DNA of 51,129 nt from assembly GCA_023382675.1 (NCBI GenBank), contig JAHDWN010000024.1:53325-104453 (forward strand), written 5' to 3'. Of this stretch, positions 4,256-38,458 are shown piece by piece. The DNA comes from Anaerolineae bacterium (GTDB lineage Bacteria > Chloroflexota > Anaerolineae > Aggregatilineales > Phototrophicaceae). How positions within the stretch are numbered: the first letter of the stretch is position 1; each line of letters opens with the position of its first letter. The notes under the pieces were generated by a model that was not told where the DNA came from, did not search any database, and worked only from the letters and a program-made list of their open reading frames with translations. The position numbers and the translations under genes were made by a program.

Positions 4256-5206
4256 CTAATCCAGCGCCAGAATCGCGCGCACGGTAATGTCATCCGTTGC
4301 CAGCACGCGGGTGAAGCCGCCGCGCAGCGCGCCGAGGATCGCCTGGGCTTTGACCTCGCCGCGCGCAATCGCAATCGACTGCGGGATCTTGCGCAGATCA
4401 TCCAGTTCCAGGCCGATGATGCGCCGGTTGATCTCGAAGCGGTCGCAGCGCCCCTGGTTGTCGTAGAAGCGCCCGCACATCTCGCCAATGACGCCCTGCC
4501 GCCGCAGCGCGCTCAAATCGGCGCGCGTCAGCAGCCCGGCGCGCAGGAAGCTCGACGCCTCATCCTGCATCGTGCCGATGCCTGTGATCGCCAGCTTGAC
4601 GCTCTGCGCGCGGACGATGCCTTCGCGCACGGATGGCTCGCGCAAGAACACGTCGCGCGACTGCGGCTGCTCGACCAGCACCGGCGCGTGCAGGTCAAAA
4701 TGGCGTCCGCCGAGCTTTTGCGCCACCATCCGGCCCAGATCCGGGCTATCGACCACCAGCTCGCCGACGCCGCCCAAAAGCTGCACCACGTCCGTGTTGC
4801 GCGTGTAGTTATCCGCAATCGCGCTCACGGCGGCGTGAACGCCCGTGCCCCAGGCCACGCCAATCGACGCACCGCTGCTGAAGTTCTTGATCACGCGCTC
4901 AAGATAGGTCGCCGCCAACCGCCCAATGGCATTCAGCAGCGTGTCGTGAGTGCTTTCGCCGGAGGTTTGCAGCACGTAGGCATCACGCAGGCCATAGCGT
5001 TCGATCAAGGTCTGTTCGAGTTCGAAATCATGCGGGATGGGCATGGAGATGTGGATCTGGACGATGCCGCGGTCGTGGGCTTCTTTAAGGATGCGGGAGA
5101 CGGTGGCAGTGGAGAGATCGAACCGGTCGCCGATTTCGCGCTGACTCTGGTTCATCTTGTAATAAAGGCTGGCAACTGTCGCGAGCAGTTCGTCACGATG
5201 TTCCAT
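4256..5206 (-). CDS. SorC/DeoR-family sugar-phosphate-responsive transcriptional regulator
   Basis: The 316-residue protein has an N-terminal helix-turn-helix of the SorC type (about residues 12-46: YYKMNQSQREIGDRFDLS, then VSRILKEAHDRGIVQI). A long C-terminal effector domain follows, with GASIGVAWGTGVHAAVSAI and GVIGEMCGRFYDNQG, typical of phosphosugar-binding SorC proteins related to sugar-phosphate isomerases. Such regulators bind palindromic operators, and a phosphorylated sugar or polyol relieves or triggers control. The gene is transcribed divergently from the transport/kinase operon that begins at 5451, across a 244-bp region with several palindromes. It is therefore the likely local regulator of that operon and of itself. 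The family is confident; the inducer is unknown. Confidence 0.88.
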   Translation of the reverse strand: MEHRDELLATVASLYYKMNQSQREIGDRFDLSTATVSRILKEAHDRGIVQIHISMPIPHDFELEQTLIERYGLRDAYVLQTSGESTHDTLLNAIGRLAATYLERVIKNFSSGASIGVAWGTGVHAAVSAIADNYTRNTDVVQLLGGVGELVVDSPDLGRMVAQKLGGRHFDLHAPVLVEQPQSRDVFLREPSVREGIVRAQSVKLAITGIGTMQDEASSFLRAGLLTRADLSALRRQGVIGEMCGRFYDNQGRCDRFEINRRIIGLELDDLRKIPQSIAIARGEVKAQAILGALRGGFTRVLATDDITVRAILALD

Positions 5207-5450: not shown

Positions 5451-6278
5451 ATGCCCGCGATTGACGGCTTCATTTTCGACCTCGATGGTACGGTTTACCT
5501 TGGCAATGCGGCGCTCCCCGGCGCGGTGGATGGCATCGCCACCCTGCGCAGCATGGGCAAGCGCACGCTGTTCGTCAGTAACAAGCCGCTCGAACCCCGC
5601 GAGAAATATGCGCACAAACTCACCGGCCTCGGCATTCCCGCCTCGCCGGATGACGTAATCACGTCGGGCTTCGTGCTCGGCTATCACCTGGCGCGCACCG
5701 AGCCGCATCTCAAGCTCTACGTCGTCGGCGAACAAAATCTGCTCGACGAACTGCGCGGCCACGGCTTGACCATCGTCAACGAGTTTCTCGATCAAGACCC
5801 GATGGAAGTCATCCACCCGGATGGTGTGGATGCCGTCGTCGTCGCCTTCGACCGCACCCTTACCTACCGCAAACTCAACACCGCTTACCAGGCCTTGATC
5901 CAGGGCGCGCGCTTCTTCGCCACCAATGCAGACAAGATGTGCCCGATGCCCGGCGGTGGTATTCCCGATGCTGGCGGCACGATTGCGGCGCTCGAACACA
6001 TGACCGGGCGCAAAGTCGAACTGCTCGCCGGTAAACCGTCCAAATTGATTATGTCCGTCGCGCTCCAACGCCTGGATCTACCGGCAGAGCGCGTGATGAT
6101 GGTCGGCGACCGGCTGGAAACCGATATTTTCATGGGCCAGCAGTCCGGCATGAAAACCGCTGTCACCATGACCGGCGCGTCCAACCGTGACGATGTCGCG
6201 CACATGGCGACACCGCCCGACCACATCATCGAAAATCTGGGGGATCTGCCCGGCCTGATGGTGCAATACGTGCCCTAG
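5451..6278 (+). CDS. HAD-superfamily IIA sugar phosphatase (NagD/AraL-like)
   Basis: The 275-residue protein has motif I FIFDLDGTVY (nucleophile Asp10, acid Asp12), motif II in LFVSNKPLEP, the Lys motif LLAGKPSKLIM and motif III/IV VGDRLETDIFMG. The large C2A cap between motifs II and III is characteristic of NagD-type class IIA HAD enzymes. These are cytoplasmic Mg-dependent phosphatases acting on sugar phosphates, phosphoglycolate, glycerol phosphate or nitrophenyl phosphate. It opens the transport operon behind a strong GGGAGG site. The B. subtilis counterpart AraL occupies an equivalent place beside the araMNPQ genes and is thought to relieve toxic sugar phosphates; a similar detoxifying or dephosphorylating job is inferred here. 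Confidence 0.85.
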   Translation: MPAIDGFIFDLDGTVYLGNAALPGAVDGIATLRSMGKRTLFVSNKPLEPREKYAHKLTGLGIPASPDDVITSGFVLGYHLARTEPHLKLYVVGEQNLLDELRGHGLTIVNEFLDQDPMEVIHPDGVDAVVVAFDRTLTYRKLNTAYQALIQGARFFATNADKMCPMPGGGIPDAGGTIAALEHMTGRKVELLAGKPSKLIMSVALQRLDLPAERVMMVGDRLETDIFMGQQSGMKTAVTMTGASNRDDVAHMATPPDHIIENLGDLPGLMVQYVP

Positions 6279-6377
6279 GCTGTGGCGCAAGCAACAGGAG
6301 GAGGTGCTGCCCGTAAAGACGATACTGAGACGCTCTCAACCACGGTTCGCAAGTTGTTGATAATGATGGAGATCTGT

Positions 6378-7742
6378 ATGAAGCACAAACTAGTCCTATT
6401 GCTCATCGTTGTCGTGATGCTCGCCCTGGGCGTTGGCGTCACTACCGCACAGGATGAGTTCAACTGGCGCGCCTACGAAGGCACTACGCTCAGATTGCTG
6501 CTCAACCAGCACCCCTACCAGCAGGCGCTGGTCGGTGAGCTGGCCAAGTTCACGGAACTGACCGGTATCAACGTCGAATACGATGTGTTCCCGGAGCAGA
6601 ACTATTTCGATAAGGTCACCATCGACCTGTCCGCAGGCGCAGCCAGCACCTACGACGTGTTCATGACGGGCGCGTACATGATCTGGCAGTATGCTCCGGC
6701 CGGCTGGATGGAACCGCTGGAACCCTACATCAACGACCCGACCAAGACCAACCCCGATTACGACTGGGAAGACATCTTCGCCGACCTGCGCAACTCGGAA
6801 GCCTGGAACCTCGAAGCTGGCCGTGAGAACCTCGGCCAGGGTTCGCAGTACGCGATTCCGTGGGGCTTTGAAGCCAACGCCTTCATGTATCGCCAGGATC
6901 TGTTCGAGGAGCACGGCCTGAGCGTCCCGCAGTCGCTGGACGAACTGGTTGCCGTCGCCGAAGCGCTGGATGCAGCTGAGCCAGAGATGGCCGGTATCGT
7001 CGTGCGTGGCAGCCTCAACTGGGCGACCATTCACCCCGGTTTCATGACCATGTACGCCAGCCAGGGCTGCGTCGACTATGACGAGAACATGATCCCGCAA
7101 ATGAACAGCGCGTGTGCCGTTGAAGTCACCAGCAAGTGGACGGAAATGGTCCGTAACGCCGGGCCAGAAGCCTGGACGACCTACACCTGGTACCAGGCCG
7201 GTTCCGACTTCGGCGCTGGCAAGGCCGGTATCCTGTTCGACGCCGACATCCTTGCTTACTTCCAGAATCAACCCGATACCGCGGCGCCTGAGGTGCTCGG
7301 TAACATTGCCTGGGCCCCCGGCCCGCTCGGCCCGGATGGCGCGCTGCGCACCAACATCTGGATCTGGTCACTGGCGATGAACTCCGGCTCCCGCAACAAG
7401 GATGCCTCCTGGTACTTCATGCAGTGGGCAACGGGCAAGGAATTCCTGACGACCGGCGCGGTCGACTACAGCATGGTCAACCCGGTTCGTGCGTCGATTT
7501 GGGAGAACCCGGACTTCCAGGCGAAGATGGCCGAACAGACCAACTACCTGGAAACCTTCAACACCATCATGGCGAACGACGCCAAGATTCAGTTCACGCC
7601 TCAGCCGCTCTTCTTCGAAACCACCACCGAATGGGCGCAGGCACTCCAGGATATTTACGCTGGTGCGGATGCACAGCAGCGCCTGGATGAACTGGTCGAT
7701 AGCCTGACGTTGCAGCTCCAGGACGCAGGCGTCATCCAGTAA
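6378..7742 (+). CDS. ABC transporter solute-binding protein, family 1 (carbohydrate/polyol)
   Basis: The start at 6378 is chosen over an upstream in-frame ATG at 6282 because it begins a clean signal peptide (MKHKLVLLLIVVVMLALGVG, then VTTAQDE) and has GGAGA upstream. The 454-residue protein fits the family-1 extracellular solute-binding fold. TGINVEYDVFPEQNYFDKV is the first domain, YDVFMTGAYMIWQYAPAGW the binding-cleft region, and AIPWGFEANAFMYRQDLF the hinge. It has no lipobox Cys, so it is predicted to be secreted rather than lipid-anchored. It delivers substrate to the two permeases that follow. A strong hairpin after its stop probably keeps its mRNA more abundant than the rest of the operon. 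The substrate is not readable; glycerol, a tetritol/pentitol or a pentose fits the context. Confidence 0.88.
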   Translation: MKHKLVLLLIVVVMLALGVGVTTAQDEFNWRAYEGTTLRLLLNQHPYQQALVGELAKFTELTGINVEYDVFPEQNYFDKVTIDLSAGAASTYDVFMTGAYMIWQYAPAGWMEPLEPYINDPTKTNPDYDWEDIFADLRNSEAWNLEAGRENLGQGSQYAIPWGFEANAFMYRQDLFEEHGLSVPQSLDELVAVAEALDAAEPEMAGIVVRGSLNWATIHPGFMTMYASQGCVDYDENMIPQMNSACAVEVTSKWTEMVRNAGPEAWTTYTWYQAGSDFGAGKAGILFDADILAYFQNQPDTAAPEVLGNIAWAPGPLGPDGALRTNIWIWSLAMNSGSRNKDASWYFMQWATGKEFLTTGAVDYSMVNPVRASIWENPDFQAKMAEQTNYLETFNTIMANDAKIQFTPQPLFFETTTEWAQALQDIYAGADAQQRLDELVDSLTLQLQDAGVIQ

Positions 7743-7759
7743 GCTGTGAGCTGCTCTCC

Positions 7760-7784
7760 GGGGGCGAGCCTATTGCTCGCCCCC
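7760..7784 (+). terminator. Hairpin after the binding-protein gene
   Basis: A perfect 10-bp stem, GGGGGCGAGC/GCTCGCCCCC with loop CTATT, sits 18 bp after the binding-protein stop and is followed by ATTTCC. A strong stem between binding-protein and permease genes is a common arrangement that stabilises upstream mRNA or partly terminates transcription, giving excess binding protein over membrane subunits. The T-tract is short, so partial termination or 3'-end protection is more likely than full termination. Confidence 0.7.
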
Positions 7785-7828
7785 ATTTCCGTCCGATAGG
7801 CGGAGAGACATTTGACCGACGAGGACAT

Positions 7829-8767
7829 ATGGCCACTAAGCAAGTCTCCGCGACAGATTTCGCGGTCCCAGAAGAAGTCGTCAAGCCACCGTGGCTTGTG
7901 CGGATGCGCCCATTCCTAATTGCGCTGCCGGCGCTGCTCATCCTGATCGGCATCCTCTACCCGTTCGTCGTGGGTGTCGCTTATTCCTTCACAGCCTACG
8001 CCTTCACCCGCCCGAACACCGCTTTCGTCGGCCTGCGCCAATATCAGCGCATGGTCGAAGACTCCGACTTTCTCTATAGTACGTTTATTACGCTGGCCTA
8101 CGCGATCTCTGCGACCGGCGTACAGCTTCTCCTCGGGCTGATCGTCGCCACCCTTCTCAACCGGGACAGCCGGATCGCCAAGATCCTGCAAACCACCCTT
8201 ATCTTCCCGATGATGGTCGCGCCGGTGATCAGCACCCTGATCTGGAAAATGATGATGCAGCCGAGCGTCGGCATCCTCAACCCGATGCTGAATGCGATCG
8301 GGCTACCTTCACTCCAATGGGCCGCCGTGCCGGAGACAGCGCTCTTTTCCGTCGTCCTGGTCGATGTCTGGATGTACACGCCGTTCGCGGCGCTCATCCT
8401 GCTCGCCGGGCTGCGCTCGTTCCCGCAGGGGCCATTCGAGGCGGCGCGCGTCGATGGCGCTTCGTTCTGGTTCACTTTCCGCAACCTCACGCTGCCGATG
8501 CTGACGCCGTTCATCCTGATCGTCATCATCTTCCGCTTCATGGACTCGCTCAAGATGTTCGACATCATCTTCGCCATGACGGAAGGCGGCCCAGGCAGCA
8601 CACTGATGACCTATCAATTGACCGCCTACCGCACCAGCATCCAATTCCAGCGTCTCGCGCAGGGCCTGCCCTACGCCATCGTCCTGTACTTCGTCATCTA
8701 CTTCGTCAGCCAGTATCTGGTGAAGTGGTGGGGCCGTGCGCAGCGGCGCGCGGCAGGTTACTCGTAG
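7829..8767 (+). CDS. ABC transporter permease, MalF/UgpA/AraP type
   Basis: The 312-residue inner-membrane protein has six predicted helices; the first is FLIALPALLILIGILYPFVV. The cytoplasmic EAA loop that docks on the ATPase reads FEAARVDGASFWFTFRNLTL and is followed by LPMLTPFILIVIIF. Length and motif placement are normal for the MalF branch lacking the extra N-terminal domain. The start has GAGG upstream (ACGAGGACATATG). It pairs with the next gene to form the channel. There are no anomalies. Confidence 0.92.
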   Translation: MATKQVSATDFAVPEEVVKPPWLVRMRPFLIALPALLILIGILYPFVVGVAYSFTAYAFTRPNTAFVGLRQYQRMVEDSDFLYSTFITLAYAISATGVQLLLGLIVATLLNRDSRIAKILQTTLIFPMMVAPVISTLIWKMMMQPSVGILNPMLNAIGLPSLQWAAVPETALFSVVLVDVWMYTPFAALILLAGLRSFPQGPFEAARVDGASFWFTFRNLTLPMLTPFILIVIIFRFMDSLKMFDIIFAMTEGGPGSTLMTYQLTAYRTSIQFQRLAQGLPYAIVLYFVIYFVSQYLVKWWGRAQRRAAGYS

Positions 8768-8777
8768 GGAGCCTATC

Positions 8778-9638
8778 ATGCATCCAAGAACAAGAAAGGC
8801 GCTGACGTCGATCTTCTCAGACGGCTTCCTGCTGATCTACTTCCTGTTCGCACTCTTCCCGATTGTCTGGATGATCCTCGTCTCGCTCAAAAGCACCAAC
8901 GAGTTGTTCACGACGCAGTTCGTCTTCACGCCGACACTCGAAAACTACCAGGCGATCATCTTTGGCGACCCGCGGGCCGCAGCCGGCGTCGTTGCGCGCG
9001 TCGATTTCCCGCGCAACTTCCTCAACAGCCTGATCGTGAGCAGCGGCGCAGTGGTCGTCTCGCTCCTGGTCGGTGTTCCGGCGGCGTATGCGCTGGCGCG
9101 CTACAACTTCAAGGGCAAAGATACACTCGCGTTCACCTTTTTGTCGTTCCGGTTCGCGCCGGAGTTGGTCGTCATCATCCCGCTGTCGCTCATCTACCGG
9201 CAGTTGGGGTTATATGACACCTATTTCGGCATCATCTGGGTCTACCAATTGGTCACACTGCCACTGCTGATCTGGGTGCTGCGCAGCTACTTCGAAGACA
9301 TCTCACCCGATGTCGAGCAGGCGGCCATGATCGATGGCTACCCGTGGCACCAGATCTTCATGAAGATTCTCCTGCCCCTGGTGCGACCGGGGTTAGCGGC
9401 GGCGGCGCTGCTGGCGTTCGTCTTCGCCTGGAACAACTTCATCTTCCCACTGGTGCTGGGCGCGTCGAACGTGCAAACCGTGACCGTCTCGGCGCTGGGT
9501 TACATTTCGTCCGCGCAGGCGTTCTTCAATCGTATGGCCGCGGCGGCAGTGATCGCATCCGTGCCGCAAATGATGCTCGCGCTGAGCATCCAACGCTACC
9601 TCATTCGCGGTCTCAGCTTCGGCGCGGTGAAGGGCTAA
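8778..9638 (+). CDS. ABC transporter permease, MalG/UgpE/AraQ type
   Basis: The start at 8778 (ATG preceded by TAGGGA) yields 286 residues and begins just ahead of the first helix, FLLIYFLFALFPIVWMILVS. An upstream in-frame start at 8736 would overlap the previous gene and add a charged leader, so it is rejected. The EAA motif reads VEQAAMIDGYPWHQIFMKIL and is followed by LPLVRPGLAAAALLAF, typical of MalG-type subunits. The gene lies 10 bp after the partner permease and is surely co-translated with it. It forms the second half of the membrane channel of this importer. Confidence 0.92.
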   Translation: MHPRTRKALTSIFSDGFLLIYFLFALFPIVWMILVSLKSTNELFTTQFVFTPTLENYQAIIFGDPRAAAGVVARVDFPRNFLNSLIVSSGAVVVSLLVGVPAAYALARYNFKGKDTLAFTFLSFRFAPELVVIIPLSLIYRQLGLYDTYFGIIWVYQLVTLPLLIWVLRSYFEDISPDVEQAAMIDGYPWHQIFMKILLPLVRPGLAAAALLAFVFAWNNFIFPLVLGASNVQTVTVSALGYISSAQAFFNRMAAAAVIASVPQMMLALSIQRYLIRGLSFGAVKG

Positions 9639-9643
9639 CGGCG

Positions 9644-10756
<1,113 letters not shown>

Positions 10757-10767
10757 CAGGTGACGCC

Positions 10768-11871
10768 ATGGCTGAAGTACGTTTAGAGCACATCTACAAG
10801 ACCTACAAAGGCGGCGTCGAGGCGGTCAAAGACCTCAACCTGACGATCAGGAACGGCGAGTTCCTGGCGCTGCTCGGCCCGTCCGGGTGCGGCAAGACAT
10901 CGACGCTGCGCATGATCGTCGGGCTGGAGCAGATCACCGCCGGCGATCTCTACATCGGCGACCGGCGCATGAACGACCTCGAACCAAGCGAACGCAACGC
11001 GGCGCTCGCCTTCGAAAGCTACGCCCTCTACCCGCCGCTGACCGTTCACGACAACATCGCCTTCTGCCTGCGTGCCCGCCAGATGGACCCCGGTGAGATC
11101 AAGCGCCGCGTCCTCGAAGTCGCAGACATGCTGGAGATTCGCGATATTCTCGGACGTAAACCGGCGGAACTCGGCGGCGGACAGAAGCAGCGCATCTCGC
11201 TGGCGCGCGCGCTCGTGCGTGACCCGGATGCCTTCCTGATGGACGAGCCGCTCTCGCACCTGGACGCCGCCCAGCGCGCCCACATGCGTGTCGAACTCAA
11301 ACGTCTGCACGCGCGCACCGGGCGCACGACCGTGCTCGTGACGCACGACCAGCTCGAAGCCGTCGCCATGGCTGAGCGCGTCGCCGTCATGAACTTCGGC
11401 GTCTTGCAGCAGGTCGGCACGTTCGACGAAATCTACAACCACCCGGCCAACGAATTCGTCGCCGGGTTCATTGGCGAACCGCCGATGAACTTCCTGGAGT
11501 GTGAACCCACCAGCCAGGATGGTCAAACGGCCCTGCGCGCGACCGATGGCAGCTTCAGCGTGACCCTGCCGGGCGAACTGCGCGCCAGGGTCGAAGGCCA
11601 GAAGGCGGGCAGGCTCAAGCTCGGCATCCGTCCCATCGACATGATCGCCGCGCCGAAGGCGAATGGCAACGGGGTGGTTGAGATCGCCGGTAACGTCTAC
11701 ACGTATGAATCGTTGGGTGAAGAAGGTCAGCTTGCGGCGCGCATTGGCAGCAATGAAGTCATCGTCGTGACCTCGCCAGATGTGACCTTCGAGCGCAGCC
11801 AGCCTGTCTGGCTCCAACTGCGCACCCATCGCATTCATCTGTTCCACGGCGATACGGGTGTGGCGCTCTAG
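10768..11871 (+). CDS. ABC transporter ATP-binding subunit 2 (MalK/UgpC-like)
   Basis: The 367-residue protein begins MAEVRLEHIYKTYKGG behind an AGGTGA site, 11 bp after subunit 1. Walker A is GPSGCGKTST, the signature is LGGGQKQRISLARA, Walker B is AFLMDEPLSHLDAAQ and the switch region is TVLVTHDQLEAVAMA. The Q-loop again reads FESYALYPPLT, with the same Gln-to-Glu change as its partner, and the signature Ser is Gly. A C-terminal regulatory domain follows residue 240. All catalytic residues for hydrolysis (Walker B Glu, switch His) are present, so both members of the pair look active. Retention of two diverged ATPases argues for an asymmetric heterodimer. Confidence 0.92.
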   Translation: MAEVRLEHIYKTYKGGVEAVKDLNLTIRNGEFLALLGPSGCGKTSTLRMIVGLEQITAGDLYIGDRRMNDLEPSERNAALAFESYALYPPLTVHDNIAFCLRARQMDPGEIKRRVLEVADMLEIRDILGRKPAELGGGQKQRISLARALVRDPDAFLMDEPLSHLDAAQRAHMRVELKRLHARTGRTTVLVTHDQLEAVAMAERVAVMNFGVLQQVGTFDEIYNHPANEFVAGFIGEPPMNFLECEPTSQDGQTALRATDGSFSVTLPGELRARVEGQKAGRLKLGIRPIDMIAAPKANGNGVVEIAGNVYTYESLGEEGQLAARIGSNEVIVVTSPDVTFERSQPVWLQLRTHRIHLFHGDTGVAL

Positions 11872-11889
11872 CATCGAGGACTCTGCCTG

Positions 11890-13422
11890 ATGTATGTTCT
11901 AGGGATCGATGCCGGGACCGAAGCGATCAAAGCAGGCGTGTTCGACCTTTCCGGCCATCTGATCGCTTCGGGTTCGCGCTCGTACACCACCCATTTCCCA
12001 CGCCCAGGCTGGGCTGAGCAAGACCCGGATGAATGGTGGGCGGGAATGGTCGGTGCGGTGCGCGACTGCCTGGCAAAGGCCAATCTCCCGGCAGACTCGA
12101 TCCGGGGTCTCAGCGCCGACGCCACAACCTGCACCCTGCTGCCGATCAAGGCGGATGGTCGTCACCTGCGGCGCGCGCTGCTGTGGATGGACGTGCGCGC
12201 GACCGAGCAGGCAGCGCGCATCTTCGCCAGCGACCACCCCGCCCTGCGCTACAGCCTCGCCGGTGTCAGCGCCGAATGGATGCCCGGCAAGATCCTCTGG
12301 CTCAAGGAGAACGAGCCGGACACCTTCGCCAACACCGACTACTTCATCGAGTTCACCGACTGGCTGGCTTACCGCCTGACCGGGCAGCTGGCGCTCAACC
12401 TGAACACCATCGTCCAGCGCTGGTATTATCACCCGCATCAGGGCGGCTGGCCGGTCGATTTTTACGAGACCATCGGCCTGGGTGGTATCGAGCAGCGCTT
12501 CCCCACAGACATCGTCCCCATCGGCGCGCCGACCGGCAGCCTGTCTGCCGAGGCAGCGGAGGCGCTCGGTCTGCCCGCAGGTATCCCGGTCGCCATGGGC
12601 GGCGGCGATGCCTTCGTCGGGCTGCTTGGTTTGGGCGTCGTCGAGCCGGGCGACCTTGGCGTGGTCACGGGGTCGTCGAACGTGCTCTCCGGCCTGGCCG
12701 CCGACGAAGTTCACTTCAAAGGCATTTTTGGCAGCTTCCCGGAGGCGCTCGTCCCCGGCCTTAACCTGATCGAGGGCGGGCAGGTCTCGACCGGCTCGAT
12801 CCTCAACTGGTTCAAGCGCAATTTCGCCGGTGGTCTCGCCGCCGAGGCGGAAGCCAGTGGCACGAGCATCTACCGCCTGCTGGACGAAGAAGCGGCGCAA
12901 GTGCCGGTCGGCTCTGACGGCCTGATCGTGCTCGACTACTTCCAGGGCAACCGCACGCCGCACACCGACTCGCTGGCGCGCGGCGTCGTCATGGGGCTGT
13001 CACTGGCGACCGGGCGGGCGCACGTCTTCCGTGCCATCATGGAGGGCATCGCCTACGGTATGAAGGACATCCTGGATACCTACGAAGCCAATGACTGCGA
13101 TGTCAGGCGCGTCATCGCCTGCGGCGGCGCGACGCAAAGCCCGCTGTTCATGCAAATCTATGCAGACGTGATCGGCAAAACGATCTATACTACACGGGTT
13201 GCGGAGGCGTCACTGTTGGGATCAGCCGTGGCCGCCGCCCATGGCGCAGGGCTTTTCCCCACTCTCGGCGCGGCGTCACGGGCGATGGTCGAGATCAGCG
13301 GTGAGTATCAGCCCGACGGCGCACGACACGCACAATATCAGTTTTATGCCGGTAAATATCGCGATGTCTACCAACAATTGCGCCCGGTGATGCACGATGT
13401 TGCCCGGCACGTGATGAAGTGA
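11890..13422 (+). CDS. FGGY-family carbohydrate kinase (ribulokinase-like branch)
   Basis: The 510-residue protein has the FGGY opening VLGIDAGTEAIKAGVFD (phosphate-binding DxGT), a domain-I segment LSADATTCTLLPI and ALLWMDVRATEQAARI, FIEFTDWLAYRLTG in the middle, and the C-terminal ATP-binding signature IACGGATQSPLFMQIYADV. The TTCTLLPI and W-Y-Y-H-P regions resemble ribulokinase-type members more than glycerol kinases, which have a different ADP-binding loop. It phosphorylates a sugar, ketose or polyol in the cytoplasm after import by the upstream transporter. The gene is 18 bp downstream of ATPase 2 and is followed by a hairpin. The substrate is undetermined; a ketopentose or a C3-C5 polyol fits. 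Confidence 0.87.
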   Translation: MYVLGIDAGTEAIKAGVFDLSGHLIASGSRSYTTHFPRPGWAEQDPDEWWAGMVGAVRDCLAKANLPADSIRGLSADATTCTLLPIKADGRHLRRALLWMDVRATEQAARIFASDHPALRYSLAGVSAEWMPGKILWLKENEPDTFANTDYFIEFTDWLAYRLTGQLALNLNTIVQRWYYHPHQGGWPVDFYETIGLGGIEQRFPTDIVPIGAPTGSLSAEAAEALGLPAGIPVAMGGGDAFVGLLGLGVVEPGDLGVVTGSSNVLSGLAADEVHFKGIFGSFPEALVPGLNLIEGGQVSTGSILNWFKRNFAGGLAAEAEASGTSIYRLLDEEAAQVPVGSDGLIVLDYFQGNRTPHTDSLARGVVMGLSLATGRAHVFRAIMEGIAYGMKDILDTYEANDCDVRRVIACGGATQSPLFMQIYADVIGKTIYTTRVAEASLLGSAVAAAHGAGLFPTLGAASRAMVEISGEYQPDGARHAQYQFYAGKYRDVYQQLRPVMHDVARHVMK

Positions 13423-13426
13423 GCAT

Positions 13427-13454
13427 ACGAGCGGGAGCAACACCCGCTCGTTTT
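13427..13454 (+). terminator. Rho-independent-type terminator after the FGGY kinase gene
   Basis: A perfect 9-bp stem ACGAGCGGG/CCCGCTCGT with loop AGCAACA begins just after the kinase stop codon and runs into TTTT. It lies inside the 48-bp gap before the AraM-like gene, so it would attenuate rather than wholly block transcription into that gene, unless the gene has its own promoter. Confidence 0.75.
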
Positions 13455-13476
13455 CAATCAGTCAACGAGGATGACC

Positions 13477-14727
13477 ATGAGCAAAATCGATCCGATCTAT
13501 GTGGGTAAAGACGCGACCAGCAAGATGTTGGAGTACGTCGCCGCCCACAACCTGAACCGCTTCGCCCTGATAGCGGATACGAACACTTATGCAGCGCTCG
13601 GCGAACACGTCGAAAAAGCGCTGAAAGATAAAGGCTACGAGGTTCACAGCGTCGTGCTGGAAGGCGATCACATTCATACCGACGAGCATCAGGTCGTCCA
13701 GGTTCTCATCCGTGCGCCCCTGGGGCCGTGTACCTTCATCGCCGTCGGTTCCGGCACGATCACCGACATCACCCGCTTTTGCAGCCACCGTTCCGGGCGT
13801 GAATTCATCGGGATGCCGACCGCGCCCTCGGTCGATGGTTTCACCTCCATCGGCGCGCCGATCATCCTGGCGGGCGTCAAGACGACCATCGTTTGCCAGC
13901 CGCCGCTCGCCGTCTTTGCCGATCTGGATACGCTCTGCAACGCGCCGCAGGAATTGGTTGCTGCCGGTTTCGGCGATATGATCGGCAAGATCACTTCGCT
14001 CGCCGACTGGAACCTGGGGCGCATCCTCTGGGACGAGCCGTTCGACACGGCTATCGAGGCGCGTTCGCGCGTCGCCATCGACAGCGTCATGAGCCAGTCG
14101 GACGCCATCGGCCACCGTTCGGAGCCGGGCATCCGCGCGCTGATGGACGCGCTGATCGAGTCTGGCCTGTGTATGCTCGATTTCGGCGCGACTCGCCCCG
14201 CTTCCGGCGCGGAGCATCACGCCTCGCACTACTGGGAAATGAAGCGCCTGCGCGAAGGCCGCGACAGTATGCTCCATGGCGCGCAAGTCGGTTACGCGCT
14301 GACGCTGGTCGCCAAGCAGTACGCCCGCATCCGCGCCATCGACCGCACCGAAATGATGAACCGCCTGGAAGCGGCGACGCTGCCCAACCGCGACAAAGAG
14401 ATCGAACAGATCCGCGCGGGCTATCAGGACATGGCTCCGAAGATCATCATCGAGCAGGGGCCGTTCCTGAACCTGACCGAGGCCGACTACGATCAGCTCA
14501 AGCGCCGCATCGCCGATAACTGGGACGAGATCCAGCGGATCGCGCAGACGGTGCCGGAACCGTCGGTCATCATCGACGCGCTGCGCAAGGCGGGCGGCCC
14601 GGCGGATTACGAGGCGCTCGGCCTGGACGCCGACGAGGTGCCGCTCGGCTTCCGCTACGGTCACTTCCTGCGCAACCGCTTCACCGTCGTCAAGCTCAGC
14701 CGCGTCCTTGACGTGCCGATTGACTGA
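13477..14727 (+). CDS. araM: sn-Glycerol-1-phosphate dehydrogenase family protein (AraM/EgsA-like)
   Basis: The 416-residue protein belongs to the iron-alcohol-dehydrogenase-like superfamily, AraM/EgsA branch. The NAD site is visible as FIAVGSGTITDITRF, with MPTAPSVDGFTS following. Metal ligands are the Asp in VAAGFGDMIGK, His in ASGAEHHASHYWEM and His in MLHGAQVGYAL. Such enzymes interconvert DHAP and sn-glycerol-1-phosphate in archaeal lipid synthesis and in Bacillus AraM. ATG 13477 is preferred to ATG 13471 because GAGG would be only 1 nt from the latter. In this operon a catabolic direction, oxidising a polyol phosphate made by the kinase or imported, is plausible; an ether-lipid role is also possible. 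The gene symbol is used for family likeness only. Confidence 0.85.
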   Translation: MSKIDPIYVGKDATSKMLEYVAAHNLNRFALIADTNTYAALGEHVEKALKDKGYEVHSVVLEGDHIHTDEHQVVQVLIRAPLGPCTFIAVGSGTITDITRFCSHRSGREFIGMPTAPSVDGFTSIGAPIILAGVKTTIVCQPPLAVFADLDTLCNAPQELVAAGFGDMIGKITSLADWNLGRILWDEPFDTAIEARSRVAIDSVMSQSDAIGHRSEPGIRALMDALIESGLCMLDFGATRPASGAEHHASHYWEMKRLREGRDSMLHGAQVGYALTLVAKQYARIRAIDRTEMMNRLEAATLPNRDKEIEQIRAGYQDMAPKIIIEQGPFLNLTEADYDQLKRRIADNWDEIQRIAQTVPEPSVIIDALRKAGGPADYEALGLDADEVPLGFRYGHFLRNRFTVVKLSRVLDVPID

Positions 14728-14730
14728 TTT

Positions 14731-14798
14731 TGAACCACAGAGGCACGGAGATCACAGAGGCTTCTTCCCCCAGTGTTCTCTGTGTCTCTGTAATTTTG
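14731..14798. repeat. CACAGAG-family inverted repeat between convergent genes
   Basis: Left arm at 14731-14760 (TGAACCACAGAGGCACGGAG and on to CACAGAGG) pairs with the right arm at 14773-14798 (TGTTCTCTGTGTCTCTGTAA). It starts 3 nt after the AraM-like stop and ends 7 nt before the GlpD stop, so it fills the whole convergent gap. It belongs to the same family as repeats at 39141-39437, 40736-40772 and 49653-49910. It would fold as a long imperfect hairpin in either transcript and may act as a bidirectional terminator. Confidence 0.7.
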
Positions 14799-14805
14799 AT
14801 TCTGC

Positions 14806-16539
14806 CTAGCTCACTTTTGCTGCCACCCCCGCCAGCCGTGCCGCCGGGACGCCGTGCTCGCGGATCAGGATGTCCGCCGCGCGTGTGATCTCCTGCTCCG
14901 TCTGTTCTGCTGACCAGTCGGTCACCTCGGCGGCGGCCTCCGCCAGCGCGCGCAGCGATGTGCTGTTGACCAGCCCGCACAGACCGATGACCGTGCGCCG
15001 GATCACGATGTCGTCCAGATGCGCGATCTTCTCATGCTCAGCGATGAACATGGTCTCGCGGCGGCTGTAGCTCGGCAGCCCAGCGAGCGAACGATCATCC
15101 CCGGCAGCGATGTAGCGCGCGACCGCTTCCGCCCGCGTGCCATAGCGCTCGAACAGCGCCGTCAGCCGGTCGAGCGGGACGCCGGTCGCGCTCGATGTCT
15201 GCGCCAGCCATGCCTCGCGCTCCGGCGGTGTATGCGGATAGCCTGCGCCGCCGCCAATGGCGATGTCATGCGTGCCCGTGCGCCGCGCCCGCTGGAGATA
15301 GGCCAGCGCCTTGTCCGTCGTCTGCTCGGCGAAGGCGCGGAAGGTCGTCCACTTGCCGCCGACCAGCGAGTAGATCGGGTAGCGCAGTGATTCATCCGGC
15401 GCGACTTCGCGGATGCTGTGCTCGCGCGTCACCAACCCGGCAAATTCGACATCGGTGTGTGGCAGCGGGCGCACGCCGCTAAAATGAAAGACGATGTGTG
15501 AACGGTCGACTTTGATGCTTGGCAGGACGTGGTCGCTGAACTTGAGGAAGTAATCGATCTCCTCGTCGCTGCACACCATCCCTTCCGGATCGTCCACATA
15601 GATGTCGGTCGCGCCGATGATCGCCTTGTCGTAGAAGGGCATGAAGATCGCCGTGCGGCCATCGGTGTTCTCGAAGTAGATCACGCTGCCATCGAGCACG
15701 CGCACTAACTCCGGATGATCGACAACGATGTGCGAGCCTTTGGTGCCGCCGATGAAGTGCGTCTTGCGCTGGAGGCTGCCGTTGACGAAATCGATCCACG
15801 CGCCCCCGGCATTGATCACCAGCCGGGGTTTGACGCGGAAGGTCTCGCCGGTCAGCTCGTCACGCAGTTCCACGCTTTCACCGTCGCCGCCGATCAGCGT
15901 GCAGTAATTGAGCGCGTGGGCATCCGCGTTCGCCGCCTCGGCATCGAGCGCCAGTTCCAGGCCGATGCGCTCCGCCTGCGGCATCAGGCAGTCGTAGTAG
16001 GTCGCTGCGCCGATCACGTCCGGGTTGAGCGCCGTGTGCTTCTTGAACGCCTGCTCACGGTTGAGCATCTTGTGTGTCGGCATCATCCGGTCGTTGCGCG
16101 TGAACCAGTCGTAGAACATCATGCCGATCTTGACGACCAGGTAGCCGCGCTCGTTGGGCTTCTTGAGCAGCCCCAGGAACTTGAGCGGCGCGTTCAACAG
16201 ACCGGAAAACCAGTGAAAGACCGGGATCGTCGTTGGGAGCGGTTCGACGGCGTGCGGCGCATTGCGCAGCAGGCGGTTACGCTCCGCCAGCGATTCGCGC
16301 ACGAGCCGGAAATCGCCGTGTTCGAGGTAGCGCAGGCCGCCGTGGGCCTGCCGAGAAGAGGCCGCGCTGGAGGCCGCGCAGAAGTCGGCCTTGTCCACCA
16401 TCAGTACGTCGACGCCCTGGAGCGCCAGGTCGCGAAACGTGCCGATGCCGTTGATGCCTGCGCCGACGATCAGCACGCTGATCTCAGGCTGCTGGCGGTA
16501 GTGATCGATGATTTGTGAGCGGTTCATGGCCTGCTGCAT
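14806..16539 (-). CDS. glpD: FAD-dependent glycerol-3-phosphate dehydrogenase
   Basis: The 577-residue product has the FAD dinucleotide-binding motif VLIVGAGINGIGTFRDLALQG near residue 22, followed by VDKADFCAASSAASSRQAHGGLRYLEHGDF, the GlpD family block written here in part. FAD-domain segments LVINAGGAWIDFVNG and GATDIYVDDPEG are present, and a C-terminal helical DAO_C domain runs from about residue 410. GlpD oxidises sn-glycerol-3-phosphate to DHAP at the membrane, passing electrons to quinone. An ATG at 16527 is an equally possible start; neither has a strong ribosome site. It converges on the AraM-like gene, so both glycerol-phosphate enantiomers could be turned into DHAP at this locus. 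Confidence 0.92.
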   Translation of the reverse strand: MQQAMNRSQIIDHYRQQPEISVLIVGAGINGIGTFRDLALQGVDVLMVDKADFCAASSAASSRQAHGGLRYLEHGDFRLVRESLAERNRLLRNAPHAVEPLPTTIPVFHWFSGLLNAPLKFLGLLKKPNERGYLVVKIGMMFYDWFTRNDRMMPTHKMLNREQAFKKHTALNPDVIGAATYYDCLMPQAERIGLELALDAEAANADAHALNYCTLIGGDGESVELRDELTGETFRVKPRLVINAGGAWIDFVNGSLQRKTHFIGGTKGSHIVVDHPELVRVLDGSVIYFENTDGRTAIFMPFYDKAIIGATDIYVDDPEGMVCSDEEIDYFLKFSDHVLPSIKVDRSHIVFHFSGVRPLPHTDVEFAGLVTREHSIREVAPDESLRYPIYSLVGGKWTTFRAFAEQTTDKALAYLQRARRTGTHDIAIGGGAGYPHTPPEREAWLAQTSSATGVPLDRLTALFERYGTRAEAVARYIAAGDDRSLAGLPSYSRRETMFIAEHEKIAHLDDIVIRRTVIGLCGLVNSTSLRALAEAAAEVTDWSAEQTEQEITRAADILIREHGVPAARLAGVAAKVS

Positions 16540-36151: not shown

Positions 36152-36637
36152 TCAATCGGTGATCGCCACGATCGGCCGATCCAGGTAGGTATCGTATTCG
36201 CGCCGGATCGGTGCGTACGACTGATTCATCAACGGTGAGGAAATCATGTAATCCGCAGTGGCGCGGTTACACGCGGTTGGGATGTTGTAAACGACGGCAA
36301 TGCGCAGGAGCGCCTTGACGTCAACATCGTGGGGATGCGGCTCCATCGGGTCCCAGAAGAAGATGATGAAGTCGATGCGCCCTTCTGCGATCATCGCTCC
36401 CAACTGCTGGTCGCCGCCCAGCGGTCCCGACTTCAGCTTGATGATCTCGACCGGTGGCTTTTCAACGGCCTCCTCAGATGTGATGCTGCTGAGCGACTCT
36501 TCGACGAGCCGACCGGTTGTGCCGGTGCAGACAAGCGTGTGCTGTGACAGTACCTCGTGATTCCACTTGACCCACTCGACCAGATCATGTTTCTGGTGGT
36601 CATGGGCGACGAGAGCGATATGCTTGACGACTTCCAC
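36152..36637 (-). CDS. mgsA: Methylglyoxal synthase
   Basis: A GTG at 36637, 9 nt after GGAGG, starts a 161-residue protein; the longer TTG frame to 36664 lacks a site. KHIALVAHDHQKHDLVEWV, TGTTGRLVEES, the catalytic GPLGGDQQLGAMIAEG (Asp in GGDQQ), FIIFFWDPMEPHPHDVDVKA with catalytic His and Asp, and NRATADYMISS make the assignment secure. The enzyme turns DHAP into methylglyoxal and phosphate when phosphate is scarce. It has a short extra loop (SITSEEAVEKPPVEIIKLK) before the GPLGGD motif. The link to the DHAP-forming locus at 5-16 kb is thematic only. Confidence 0.93.
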   Translation of the reverse strand: MEVVKHIALVAHDHQKHDLVEWVKWNHEVLSQHTLVCTGTTGRLVEESLSSITSEEAVEKPPVEIIKLKSGPLGGDQQLGAMIAEGRIDFIIFFWDPMEPHPHDVDVKALLRIAVVYNIPTACNRATADYMISSPLMNQSYAPIRREYDTYLDRPIVAITD

Positions 36638-36973
36638 TACAGTGATCCTCCATACCTCGTTCAAGCGTCACGATGGCGAGCGTGTTCGCCGCCTCCATCG
36701 CTCTTTGCAGGATAAGGCAATCCACCAGGCGGAGTTATGGCACATAATCACCAAAAGAAATCGGAAATAGACCGTTGCTTTTTACTGAATCACTCATATT
36801 TCAAGGGTGCAGAAACCGTCGTGGGCATCTTGACCGGGTGCTGCGTCTACTCCAAGATCTGCATATCCGTGCCACGCGCCTTCATAGCCGGGTTCATCGC
36901 ATCGTCGCGCAGTGCTGACCATCACGCAGATTCGTTATACTCTGCCCATGCGCCATTCCAATAGATACGAATC
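36638..36973. other. Intergenic gap with no recognised element
   Basis: The 336-bp divergent gap between mgsA and the FGGY kinase is more AT-rich than its surroundings at 36737-36800 and shows no protein-like frame, RNA gene or hairpin that I can support. TTATACT at 36935 could be a -10 for the kinase, but no paired -35 is evident. Confidence 0.4.
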
Positions 36974-38458
36974 ATGTCCAACGAACTCCTCTTAGGCATC
37001 GACATCGGCACGACCAACGCCAAGGCGATCCTGGCGACGCCGGACGGCAAGGTAGTCGCGCAGGCCACGGAAAGCTACGGCCTGCTCACACCGCGCCCCG
37101 GCTGGGTCGAACAGAATCCGGAAGACTGGTGGCAGGGCGTCGCCAGCGTGACGCGCCAGGTGATGGCGCAGTCGGGCGCGCAGCCGGGGCAGATCAAGGC
37201 CATCGGCCTGAGCGGCCAGGGCGCGGGCGCGGTCTTGATCGACGCGGCGGGCCAGCCGGTGCATCCAGGCATCATCTGGATGGACGCGCGCTCGGAAGCC
37301 GAGTCCGCCATGCTCCGCGAGCGCTGTGGCCCGCGCATCCTCGCCATCAACGGCAAGCACCCCGCGCCCTACAGCGTCGATCCCAAGCTCATCTGGCTGC
37401 AAACGCACATGCCGGACGTGATCGCGCGCGCGGCGACCTGGCTGACGACGACCGGCTACGGCACCTTCCGCCTGACGGGCGAGCGTGTCCTCAACGTCTC
37501 TGACGCCAGCATCGCCTTCTCGCTCGATCAGTTGGCGGGCGATTGGTCGGACGAATTGATCGAGGCGTATGGCACGCCGCGGCGGCTCTACCCGCGCGTC
37601 GAGCCATGCCAGGCGATTGTCGGCGGGCTGCTCCCGCAAGCGGCGGCGGCGCTGGGCTTGCAAGTGGACACGCCCGTCATCGCCGGGGGTGAGGATACGT
37701 CGGCAGCCGGGCTGGCGGTCGGCGTCAGCCAGCCGGGGCAGGCCATGCTCTCACTCGGCACGGGCGGCTCGATCTATATCGCCCAGGATCGCCCGCTGGC
37801 ACACCCGCTGATGCTGATCTTCGCCCACGTACTCGAACAGCAGTGGTTCGTCGGCGGGACGATTGTCGCTTTTGGCGCGTCGCTCGCCTGGATGCGCGAT
37901 CTGCTCGGCCACACCGATTTCGAAGCGATGACCGCGCTCGCCGCTCAGAGTGAACCGGGCAGCAGCGGCCTGCTCTTCCTGCCCTACCTGAGCGGCGAAC
38001 TCCAGCCGATCAACGACGGCCACGCGCGCGGCGTCTTCGCCGGGCTGAGCCTGAACACGCGCCAGCCGCAGTTGATCCGCGCCGTGCTCGAAGGCACGGC
38101 TTTCGCCATAGCGCACAACATCCTGGTGGCCGAGGAGGTCGGCGCGACGCTGACCGAACTGCGCGGCGTCGGCGGCCCCACGCGCAGCCCACTCTGGTGC
38201 CAGATCATCGCCGACGTCACCCAGCAGCCGCTGACCGTGCTCAAAGATAACCCCGGCGCGCCGCTCGGCGATGTCTTCCTGGCCGCGGCGGCCATCGGCC
38301 TGATCGACGATGCGGGCGCGGCGGCAGCGCGCGCGGCGCAGGTCGAGCACGTCTACCAGCCGGATACATCGTTGGCGGATGTCTACGCGCGTCAGTTCGA
38401 GGTCTATCGCGGCCTCTACCCGGCGCTCAAGCCCTCGTTCGCAGCGCTCAACGGCTGA
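36974..38458 (+). CDS. Xylulokinase-like FGGY kinase
   Basis: The 494-residue protein has LLGIDIGTTNAKAILATPDG at the start, IKAIGLSGQGAGAVLIDAAG and GIIWMDARSEAES in domain I, and LRGVGGPTRSPLWCQIIADV with VTQQPLTVLKDNPGAPLGDVFLAAAAIG in the ATP domain (quoted in part). These fit the xylulokinase side of FGGY. It phosphorylates D-xylulose or a similar ketose. It is not next to an isomerase or transporter and is followed, 4 bp after its stop, by a membrane-anchored unknown. It is distinct from the ribulokinase-like kinase at 11890. Confidence 0.85.
   Translation: MSNELLLGIDIGTTNAKAILATPDGKVVAQATESYGLLTPRPGWVEQNPEDWWQGVASVTRQVMAQSGAQPGQIKAIGLSGQGAGAVLIDAAGQPVHPGIIWMDARSEAESAMLRERCGPRILAINGKHPAPYSVDPKLIWLQTHMPDVIARAATWLTTTGYGTFRLTGERVLNVSDASIAFSLDQLAGDWSDELIEAYGTPRRLYPRVEPCQAIVGGLLPQAAAALGLQVDTPVIAGGEDTSAAGLAVGVSQPGQAMLSLGTGGSIYIAQDRPLAHPLMLIFAHVLEQQWFVGGTIVAFGASLAWMRDLLGHTDFEAMTALAAQSEPGSSGLLFLPYLSGELQPINDGHARGVFAGLSLNTRQPQLIRAVLEGTAFAIAHNILVAEEVGATLTELRGVGGPTRSPLWCQIIADVTQQPLTVLKDNPGAPLGDVFLAAAAIGLIDDAGAAAARAAQVEHVYQPDTSLADVYARQFEVYRGLYPALKPSFAALNG

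What the first reader, a model, noticed from the sequence alone, without database searches (positions are those of the whole stretch)
5451..16539. AraL-AraN-AraP-AraQ-kinase-AraM set without arabinose isomerase or epimerase
The order phosphatase (NagD/AraL-like), binding protein, two permeases, two ATPases, ribulokinase-like FGGY kinase and G1P dehydrogenase mirrors the B. subtilis araL-M-N-P-Q module and araB, but araA and araD are missing and GlpD converges. This implies that the module works on a C3-C5 polyol or glycerophosphate rather than arabinose. One route: import, phosphorylation by the kinase, oxidation by the AraM-like enzyme to DHAP or a ketose phosphate, with the phosphatase clearing dead-end phosphates. 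AraM acting in catabolism of sn-glycerol-1-phosphate, for example from archaeal lipids, would be new.
Basis: partly seen in the sequence, partly recalled or inferred. Interest (0 to 1): 0.7.

Follow-up and report, generated by a model that had tools for sequence, protein, structure and literature searches.

The report
Polyol uptake locus with AraM dehydrogenase
A conserved gene set in Chloroflexota bacteria looks built to import small sugar alcohols and feed them into central metabolism, and it includes a dehydrogenase of a family best known from archaea-type lipid synthesis, which suggests that such enzymes may also serve in breaking down sugar alcohols.

Summary
The gene set is real: SorC regulator, HAD-IIA phosphatase, binding protein, two permeases, two ATPases, FGGY kinase, AraM-type G1P dehydrogenase, convergent GlpD. 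It is not an ara module: the genome has araA, a true L-ribulokinase with an aldolase-II gene beside it, and a true GlpK elsewhere. The transporter is 44-47% (binding protein) and 40-52% (permeases) identical to Sinorhizobium/Gemmobacter polyol-locus transporters; its binding protein does not match those of the genome's own arabinan locus. A XylB-like kinase at 36974-38458 belongs to the set: its orthologues sit beside GlpD in relatives. The dehydrogenase is closest to Bacillus subtilis AraM in sequence and fold. HAD, both kinases and GlpD co-occur with it across 154 genomes; similar sets with distant homologues recur in Alphaproteobacteria and Rubrobacter. Best model (inferred): polyol uptake, phosphorylation, oxidation to ketose 1-phosphate by AraM (sn-G1P-like ends) or GlpD (sn-G3P-like ends), HAD dephosphorylation, re-phosphorylation by ribulo-/xylulokinase-like enzymes. 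No substrate was measured. Plain DHAP/G1P turnover remains a strong rival.

The parts
4256..5206 (-). SorC-family sugar-binding transcriptional regulator, divergent from the operon
   Evidence: PF04198 222.6 bits; homologue next to the HAD gene in L005, L006, L014, L015, L018, L019, L020 and L120
5451..6278 (+). HAD-IIA phosphatase (AraL/NagD/PGP class)
   Evidence: TIGR01460 142 bits, cut-off 100; 21 of the 22 genomes with it have the dehydrogenase
6378..7742 (+). ABC solute-binding protein, polyol type
   Evidence: PF01547; best PDB relatives are 4rya, named sorbitol SBP, and 5iai; 44-47% to Gemmobacter and Sinorhizobium polyol-locus SBPs
7829..8767 (+). ABC permease A
   Evidence: PF00528; 40% to the Gemmobacter and 44% to the S. 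americanum polyol-locus permease
8781..9638 (+). ABC permease B
   Evidence: PF00528; 51% to the Gemmobacter and 52% to the S. americanum polyol-locus permease
9641..10756 (+). ABC ATPase 1 (UgpC/MalK-like)
   Evidence: NF008653 365 bits, below cut-off 432
10768..11871 (+). ABC ATPase 2 (UgpC/MalK-like)
   Evidence: NF008653 386 bits, below cut-off 432
11890..13422 (+). FGGY kinase, ribulokinase-like subfamily (not AraB, not GlpK)
   Evidence: in 11 of 11 genomes with a close orthologue it lies directly next to the dehydrogenase
13471..14727 (+). AraM-type (G1P dehydrogenase family) dehydrogenase
   Evidence: PF13685 119 bits; B. subtilis AraM 9h4x Z 47.9, 40% identity over 364 residues; metal-ligand positions conserved
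14806..16539 (-). GlpD-family FAD dehydrogenase
   Evidence: DAO and DAO_C domains; below the GlpD equivalog cut-off (273 against 360 bits); orthologues of 63% or more in 12 genomes, all 12 with the dehydrogenase
36974..38458 (+). Second, XylB-like FGGY kinase of the set, displaced about 20 kb in this genome
   Evidence: 77% to the kinase beside GlpD in L022 and in one starred clade with those of L006, L015 and L018; 67% or more in 8 genomes, all 8 with the dehydrogenase

Best explanation
The locus is a polyol (sugar alcohol, most likely C4-C5) uptake and catabolic module. An ABC importer with two ATPases brings the polyol in. One FGGY kinase phosphorylates an end. The carbon next to the phosphate is oxidised to give a ketose 1-phosphate: by the AraM-type enzyme where that end has sn-glycerol-1-phosphate configuration, by GlpD where it has sn-glycerol-3-phosphate configuration. 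The HAD phosphatase frees the ketose, and a ribulokinase-like or xylulokinase-like FGGY enzyme makes the 5-phosphate for the pentose phosphate pathway. D-arabitol is a natural candidate: both of its ends are sn-G1P-like, and its two products, D-xylulose and D-ribulose, match the two kinase types. Shown: gene content, conservation, co-occurrence, family assignments. Inferred: substrate, reaction direction, step order, which kinase acts first.
For: Transporter related to polyol-locus transporters, and SBP unlike the two of the own arabinan locus. Rhizobial loci with the homologous transporter also have SorC, two FGGY kinases, a GlpD-family enzyme and a HAD gene; the published S. [quoted passage not shown] In L018 and L019 ten genes from HAD to the XylB-like kinase run co-directionally with gaps of 3-178 bp. 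Co-occurrence with the dehydrogenase: HAD 21 of 22, kinase 11 of 11, GlpD 12 of 12, XylB-like 8 of 8 among 154 genomes. SorC, FGGY, dehydrogenase and HAD together in 5 of 5 alphaproteobacterial loci opened for the dehydrogenase; there the HAD is annotated type IIB, so a phosphatase step recurs with a different phosphatase. Related sets in two Rubrobacter plasmids. The kinase keeps AraB-type motifs at positions I recall as substrate contacts. Stereochemical table.
Against: No activity or substrate is measured. The dehydrogenase keeps the B. subtilis AraM motifs, so it may be strict for G1P/DHAP. Of 27 dehydrogenase genomes, 16 lack the close kinase, 15 the close GlpD and 6 the HAD orthologue. 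In the stretches seen the dehydrogenase stands without kinase, GlpD or this importer in L009, L011, L012, L013, L079, L083 and L085, and with HAD but without the other module genes in L078, L079, L080 and L083. GlpD is only 30-32% identical to the EryB-type enzymes. No kinase here is an EryA orthologue. The SBP is below the 56% cut-off that Geddes et al. used for MptA. L006 has the module without the ribulokinase-like kinase. In Priestia the dehydrogenase lies in an ara context.
Confidence: 0.5

Rival explanations
1. True G1P metabolism: the AraM-type enzyme interconverts DHAP and sn-G1P and the HAD enzyme hydrolyses G1P to glycerol, a second route of glycerol formation or a redox valve; the transporter, kinases and GlpD are a loosely attached polyol/glycerol system.
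For: Closest to B. subtilis AraM, whose G1PDH activity is published (PMC5059525, passage seen), with its active-site motifs; HAD and dehydrogenase occur together without the other module genes in L078, L079, L080 and L083; solved relatives of the HAD include glycerol-3-phosphate phosphatases 7po7 and 4i9f, though several other phosphatases rank higher; class II aldolases beside the dehydrogenase in L017 and L084 could supply DHAP.
Against: Does not explain why two pentulose-type kinases, GlpD and a polyol importer track the dehydrogenase or run in one operon in L018 and L019.
Confidence: 0.28
2. Catabolism of imported or scavenged sn-G1P (for example from archaeal lipids): G1P to DHAP by the AraM-type enzyme, G3P to DHAP by GlpD.
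For: G1P- and G3P-type dehydrogenases lie side by side and both would give DHAP; ATPases score best against the UgpC model, though below its cut-off.
Against: Binding protein and permeases resemble polyol systems, and two pentulose-type kinases and a phosphatase would have no clear role.
Confidence: 0.08
3. G1P synthesis for archaea-type ether lipids, as for B. subtilis AraM and PcrB.
For: AraM family.
Against: 0 of 154 genomes of the order, this one included, have a PcrB/GGGPS match over the cut-off; 3 have one below it. Sugar-uptake context.
Confidence: 0.03
4. A cryptic arabinose operon: import and phosphorylation of L-ribulose or L-arabinose.
For: Resemblance to the B. subtilis ara gene set (recalled); kinase segments resemble AraB; in Priestia the dehydrogenase lies by araA and araB.
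Against: Separate araA, araB and AraD-like gene in the genome; SBP unlike the two arabinan-locus SBPs; kinase 247.5 bits against cut-off 583 for L-ribulokinase.
Confidence: 0.04

Closest known systems
S. meliloti / S. fredii erythritol-adonitol-L-arabitol locus (mptABCDE-ery-rbt)
   Same: SorC-type regulator, ABC importer with two ATPases (homologous), two FGGY kinases, a GlpD-family dehydrogenase, a HAD gene
   Different: Window adds an AraM-type dehydrogenase; its kinases are not EryA, GlpD is 30-32% to the EryB type, and no EryC, TpiB, RpiB or aldolase-II gene lies in the locus
B. subtilis ara operon with araL and araM
   Same: HAD-IIA phosphatase and AraM dehydrogenase together (B. subtilis order recalled)
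   Different: No araA/B/D in the locus, importer with two ATPases in the locus, GlpD and a second kinase in the set
Alphaproteobacterial plasmid loci SorC-FGGY-G1PDH-HAD (R. leguminosarum WSM1689, Agrobacterium, Acidiphilium, Shinella, S. meliloti Ak57)
   Same: Same functional set, GlpD annotated in four of the five
   Different: Dehydrogenase only 24-26% identical in the alignment, with altered motif; phosphatase annotated HAD-IIB; other transporters; no published function seen in the searches made
Rubrobacter plasmid loci (R. radiotolerans, R. indicoceani)
   Same: HAD-IIA next to the dehydrogenase, kinases 44-48% identical to the window kinase, GlpD-type enzyme
   Different: Dehydrogenases 26-27% identical; also dihydroxyacetone kinase family, RpiB, transketolase; DeoR regulator

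Membership tests
Arabinose (ara) operon | araA, araB, araD in the locus | tested here: not met
   Absent from the locus; araA at C8, AraB and an aldolase-II gene at C4
Arabinose (ara) operon | Kinase is L-ribulokinase | tested here: not met
   TIGR01234 247.5 bits, cut-off 583.25; own starred clade apart from the AraB clade (quick tree)
Arabinose (ara) operon | SBP homologous to arabino-sugar SBPs | tested here: inconclusive
   No match to one and E 0.055 to the other SBP of the own arabinan locus, against 45-47% to polyol-locus SBPs; B. subtilis AraN itself was not compared
AraM-type G1P dehydrogenase | Closest sequence and fold to characterised AraM | tested here: met
   9h4x best in sequence, Z 47.9 against 36.5 for the next
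AraM-type G1P dehydrogenase | Metal-ligand Asp/His/His positions (recalled for the Fe-ADH family) | tested here: met
   D169, H249, H253 and H269 are among the nearly invariant columns
AraM-type G1P dehydrogenase | NCBIfam NF002022 G1P dehydrogenase cut-off | tested here: not met
   180.8 bits against 413; B. subtilis AraM itself was not scored against it
AraM-type G1P dehydrogenase | DHAP/G1P activity | not testable with these tools
   needs enzyme assay
mpt/ery polyol locus | Homologous ABC importer with two ATPases | tested here: met
   SBP 44-47%, permeases 40-52%, ATPases 34-42% identical in best matches
mpt/ery polyol locus | MptA, EryA, EryB at the identity cut-offs of Geddes et al. (56, 46, 65%) | tested here: not met
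   SBP 44-47%; window kinase 24% to the Gemmobacter EryA-like kinase and XylB-like kinases of L006/L015 24-28%; GlpD 30-32% (cut-offs). S. meliloti 1021 proteins themselves not compared
Glycerol kinase GlpK | Kinase is GlpK | tested here: not met
   TIGR01311 138-143 bits, cut-off 590; true GlpK at C22, 757.8 bits
GlpD equivalog | NCBIfam NF008899 cut-off | tested here: not met
   273.4 bits against 360
Archaea-type ether lipid synthesis | PcrB/GGGPS partner in the genome | tested here: not met
   0 of 154 genomes over cut-off, 3 below it, none in this genome

The most novel reading that the evidence does not exclude
AraM-family enzymes outside Bacillus are polyol 1-phosphate dehydrogenases, the mirror-image partner of GlpD/EryB, so that a locus with both can oxidise tetritols and pentitols of either end configuration. 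The general scheme phosphorylate, oxidise, dephosphorylate, re-phosphorylate is a widespread, unassigned route of sugar-alcohol catabolism, and it would give bacterial 'archaeal-type' G1P dehydrogenases a catabolic rather than lipid role.
Probability: 0.33. Interest if true: 0.72.

Novelty: new variant of a known kind. Interest (0 to 1): 0.52.

Why it matters
Bacterial AraM is discussed as a lipid-divide enzyme in the two papers whose passages I saw (PMC13400652; PMC5059525). A recurrent catabolic context in three phyla, though with distant homologues in two of them, would give it a metabolic reason to exist in bacteria, give a testable substrate class to proteins annotated 'sn-glycerol-1-phosphate dehydrogenase', and warn against reading G1P-based lipids from the gene alone.

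Tried and rejected
Arabinose operon: rejected, since the genome has a separate araA, AraB and AraD-like gene. Kinase as GlpK: rejected. Ether lipids: no PcrB over cut-off. A GlpSTPQV-type glycerol importer was considered because of the two ATPases; the paper search gave one hit, a Halomonas genome report, and another two-ATPase importer in Shinella (L096) is only 27-40% similar in the subunits compared, so the mpt-type match was preferred. The dehydrogenase paralogue at C7 is not a second G1PDH of this kind: it lacks the metal-ligand residues (L038 row).

ORF picking chose false ORFs in GC-rich plasmids; replaced by deposited gene coordinates. The same picker was used for unannotated loci, so a missed gene there is possible (it missed the L021 kinase that one search found and one permease in L108). 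The PLSDB gene tables are incomplete. The SBP structure model was poor (pLDDT 40) and was not used. The kinase tree is a 'quick' tree with long-branch warnings; only shallow starred clades are used.

Identity thresholds for GlpD (63%) and XylB-like (67%) were set after seeing the gap. Looser: GlpD at 60% gives 13 of 13; XylB-like at 58-59% gives 9 of 10 (G088 lacks a close dehydrogenase). At 47-51% the kinase search also hits G045, G068 and G093, and G093 lacks a close dehydrogenase. The one HAD genome without it, G008, is 75% complete. p-values ignore phylogeny; within two genera the HAD association keeps p 0.0037 and 0.00041, while the other genes within single genera give p from 0.0062 to 0.18. 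Of 45 plasmid records with a dehydrogenase match I opened eight loci; seven show an FGGY and HAD context, and Priestia (L100) shows an ara context. One of the 18 loci (L012) is titled Bacteroidetes.

The listings of paper searches (titles and abstract beginnings) showed no paper joining G1P dehydrogenase with polyol catabolism; PMC5125639 (eukaryotic iron-containing alcohol dehydrogenases) holds both words and was not read, and one search listed 25 of 967. Two further papers, looked up by DOI for erythritol/adonitol catabolism, were not held. In PMC3599248 I saw passages and one section only; assigning lalA, rbtB and rbtC to the aldolase-II, FGGY and HAD genes is my inference from gene order. 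In PMC3207120 (AraL) I saw passages: AraL hydrolyses several sugar phosphates with low specificity, glycerol 3-phosphate gave no activity, and its deletion did not affect growth on arabinose.
Full report
What is there. A SorC-family regulator at 4256-5206 is divergent. The window lies in a 6.4-Mb genome. The closest named relatives of its dehydrogenase are in Anaerolineae MAGs.

Not arabinose. The genome has L-arabinose isomerase at C8:65101, near genes that I read as glycosidases. At C4 it has an L-ribulokinase at 778 bits over a cut-off of 583, next to an aldolase-II gene. A true GlpK is at C22 (757.8 bits). The locus kinase reaches neither cut-off (247.5 and 143 bits). In a quick tree it forms its own starred clade with Anaerolineae orthologues, within a larger set that also holds the AraB clade, a group of C29 and Rubrobacter kinases, and single Skermanella, Priestia and Shinella kinases. 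It keeps the D-x-T, S-A/S-E-W and E-A/G-G-Q motifs seen in the AraB rows.

Transporter. Against the PDB, the binding protein's best relatives are 4rya (named sorbitol SBP; 129 bits with a profile) and 5iai (89 bits), above the next (64 bits). Against plasmids, the best 20 SBP hits, in Gemmobacter, Shinella and Sinorhizobium, are 44-47% identical, the next 35%. The loci opened read SorC, SBP, permease, permease, ATPase, ATPase, FGGY and onward. The Gemmobacter and Sinorhizobium ones continue with a GlpD-family enzyme and class II aldolase, and the S. fredii NGR234 and S. americanum ones also with a second FGGY, a HAD gene (Hydrolase_6 domain in L108), an EryC-like isomerase, DeoR, a triose-phosphate-isomerase-type gene and RpiB. 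I take these as loci of the erythritol/adonitol/L-arabitol type described by Geddes et al. (PMC3599248; passages and one section seen). [quoted passage not shown] The two SBPs of the own arabinan locus do not match the window SBP (none, and E 0.055).

The dehydrogenase. PDB 9h4x is the best match by sequence (279 bits) and by fold (Z 47.9, 40% identity over 364 residues, next Z 36.5; model pLDDT 89.8). One search names it Ni2+-dependent G1P dehydrogenase AraM of B. subtilis. The metal-ligand positions are kept, with the RPASGAEHH stretch (RPASGGEHH in 9h4x); four of the five alphaproteobacterial homologues have HGSMGEHQ or SPGSMGEHQ-like letters there and the fifth HPGSMGEHQ, all with GSMGEHQ in common, and the C7 paralogue lacks the ligands. 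So the window enzyme may well be a genuine G1P/DHAP enzyme.

Conservation. The scan returned 18 loci. Labelled: eight keep transporter genes in the same run as the dehydrogenase (L005, L006, L007, L015, L016, L018, L019, L020); L014 keeps SorC, HAD, half an ATPase and the kinase; L008 keeps HAD and kinase; L010 the kinase; L017 the HAD; L021 a different FGGY; L022 GlpD and two FGGY; L009, L011, L012 and L013 none of the set in the stretch held. L020 and L022 come from one MAG. In L018 and L019 ten genes from HAD to a XylB-like kinase run in one direction.

A missing member found. The XylB-like kinase that stands beside GlpD in L006, L015, L018 and L022 has its orthologue inside the window at 36974-38458 (77% to L022; starred clade of five), about 20 kb away. 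It scores 375.5 bits against the xylulokinase cut-off of 380; of the four relatives' copies scored, L015, L018 and L022 exceed it (405, 392, 383) and L006 does not (375.6).

Co-occurrence. In 154 genomes of the order, 27 hold a close orthologue of the dehydrogenase (E 1.3e-78 or better; the next best genome has 5.9e-28). The HAD gene is in 22, of which 21 have the dehydrogenase. The close kinase is in 11 of 11, always adjacent; GlpD at 63% or more in 12 of 12; the XylB-like kinase at 67% or more in 8 of 8. Counts and hypergeometric values are, uncorrected for descent; the HAD link holds within two genera (p 0.0037 and 0.00041). In G048 and G051 HAD and dehydrogenase are on different contigs, so linkage alone does not explain it. 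Against the model: 6 of the 27 dehydrogenase genomes lack the HAD orthologue at that cut-off, 15 the close GlpD, 16 the close kinase and 19 the close XylB-like kinase.

Other phyla. Of 45 plasmid records with a dehydrogenase match I opened eight loci. Five alphaproteobacterial loci (Shinella, S. meliloti Ak57, Acidiphilium, R. leguminosarum WSM1689, Agrobacterium) hold SorC, an FGGY kinase, the dehydrogenase and a phosphatase annotated HAD-IIB; four of the five have an annotated GlpD and L104 has an unannotated gap there. Two Rubrobacter loci hold HAD-IIA beside the dehydrogenase, kinases 44-48% identical to the window kinase, and a GlpD-type enzyme. Priestia has it in an ara context. These homologues are distant (24-27%, Priestia 41%). 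A phosphatase of another HAD type in the same position suggests that the dephosphorylation step itself is selected. Sugar-type neighbours also turn up in Anaerolineae relatives with other contexts: xylose-isomerase-like TIM-barrel genes in L078 and L086, a zinc dehydrogenase in L086, class II aldolases in L017 and L084, RpiB in L125.

GlpD. The window enzyme is below the GlpD equivalog cut-off (273 against 360) and only 30-32% identical to the EryB-type enzymes of the mpt-type loci. Its best match among the plasmid genes compared is a Shinella GlpD/oxidase-annotated gene (42%) that lies by an importer, tpiA and a kinase in the EryA group of the quick tree. Whether its substrate is G3P or a polyol phosphate is open.

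Mechanism (inferred). GlpD-type enzymes and AraM oxidise the carbon beside the phosphate in opposite configurations. One search lists the consequence: L-arabitol and L-threitol offer only sn-G3P-like ends; D-arabitol and D-threitol only sn-G1P-like ends; erythritol, ribitol and xylitol one of each. A locus with both dehydrogenases could thus take all of them to ketose 1-phosphates, which the HAD enzyme could free and the ribulokinase- and xylulokinase-like enzymes re-phosphorylate at carbon 5. D-arabitol is the example that needs the AraM side and gives D-xylulose and D-ribulose. None of these steps is measured, and which kinase acts on the polyol is open. The rhizobial precedent for two FGGY plus HAD is my reading of gene order.

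Rivals. The strongest is plain DHAP/G1P/glycerol turnover by the AraM-HAD pair, which occurs without the other module genes in L078, L079, L080 and L083 (L080 beside another ABC importer). Archaeal-lipid G1P catabolism has no specific support. Ether-lipid synthesis lacks a PcrB match over the cut-off in all 154 genomes.

Verdict. Observation confirmed, interpretation partly supported: a new variant of polyol catabolic locus, worth assaying because it bears on what bacterial AraM is for.

Noticed in passing
L036 (G000:C29:54000-72000), kinase 8505-10070: A 50%-identical kinase paralogue sits with an RbsABC-like importer, genes that look like 2-oxoacid dehydrogenase E1 alpha/beta and E2, a SorC regulator and SDRs (my reading); a Priestia aryabhattai plasmid (L099) has a similar set with a SAF-domain protein. 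An unassigned sugar pathway.
   Followed up: partly
window 36152-36664 (-): MGS-like domain protein, possibly methylglyoxal synthase (a DHAP overflow enzyme), divergent from the XylB-like kinase.
   Followed up: partly
L038 8360-9415 (G000:C7): A 351-aa distant Fe-ADH_2 homologue, with similar weak matches in many genomes of the order, lacks the metal-ligand residues of G1P dehydrogenases; function unclear.
   Followed up: partly
L078 3201-4064; L086 8434-9291: Xylose-isomerase-like TIM-barrel (PF01261) genes lie near the AraM-type dehydrogenase in two relatives without the importer of the window, possibly ketose epimerases.
   Followed up: partly
L020 2697-4185 and 5296-6186: Binding-protein and permease genes each appear as two ORFs in this MAG contig, perhaps frameshifts or assembly errors.
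   Followed up: no
G000, 20 places: The genome carries 20 matches to the FGGY kinase at E 0.001 or better, a large sugar and polyol kinase repertoire.
   Followed up: partly
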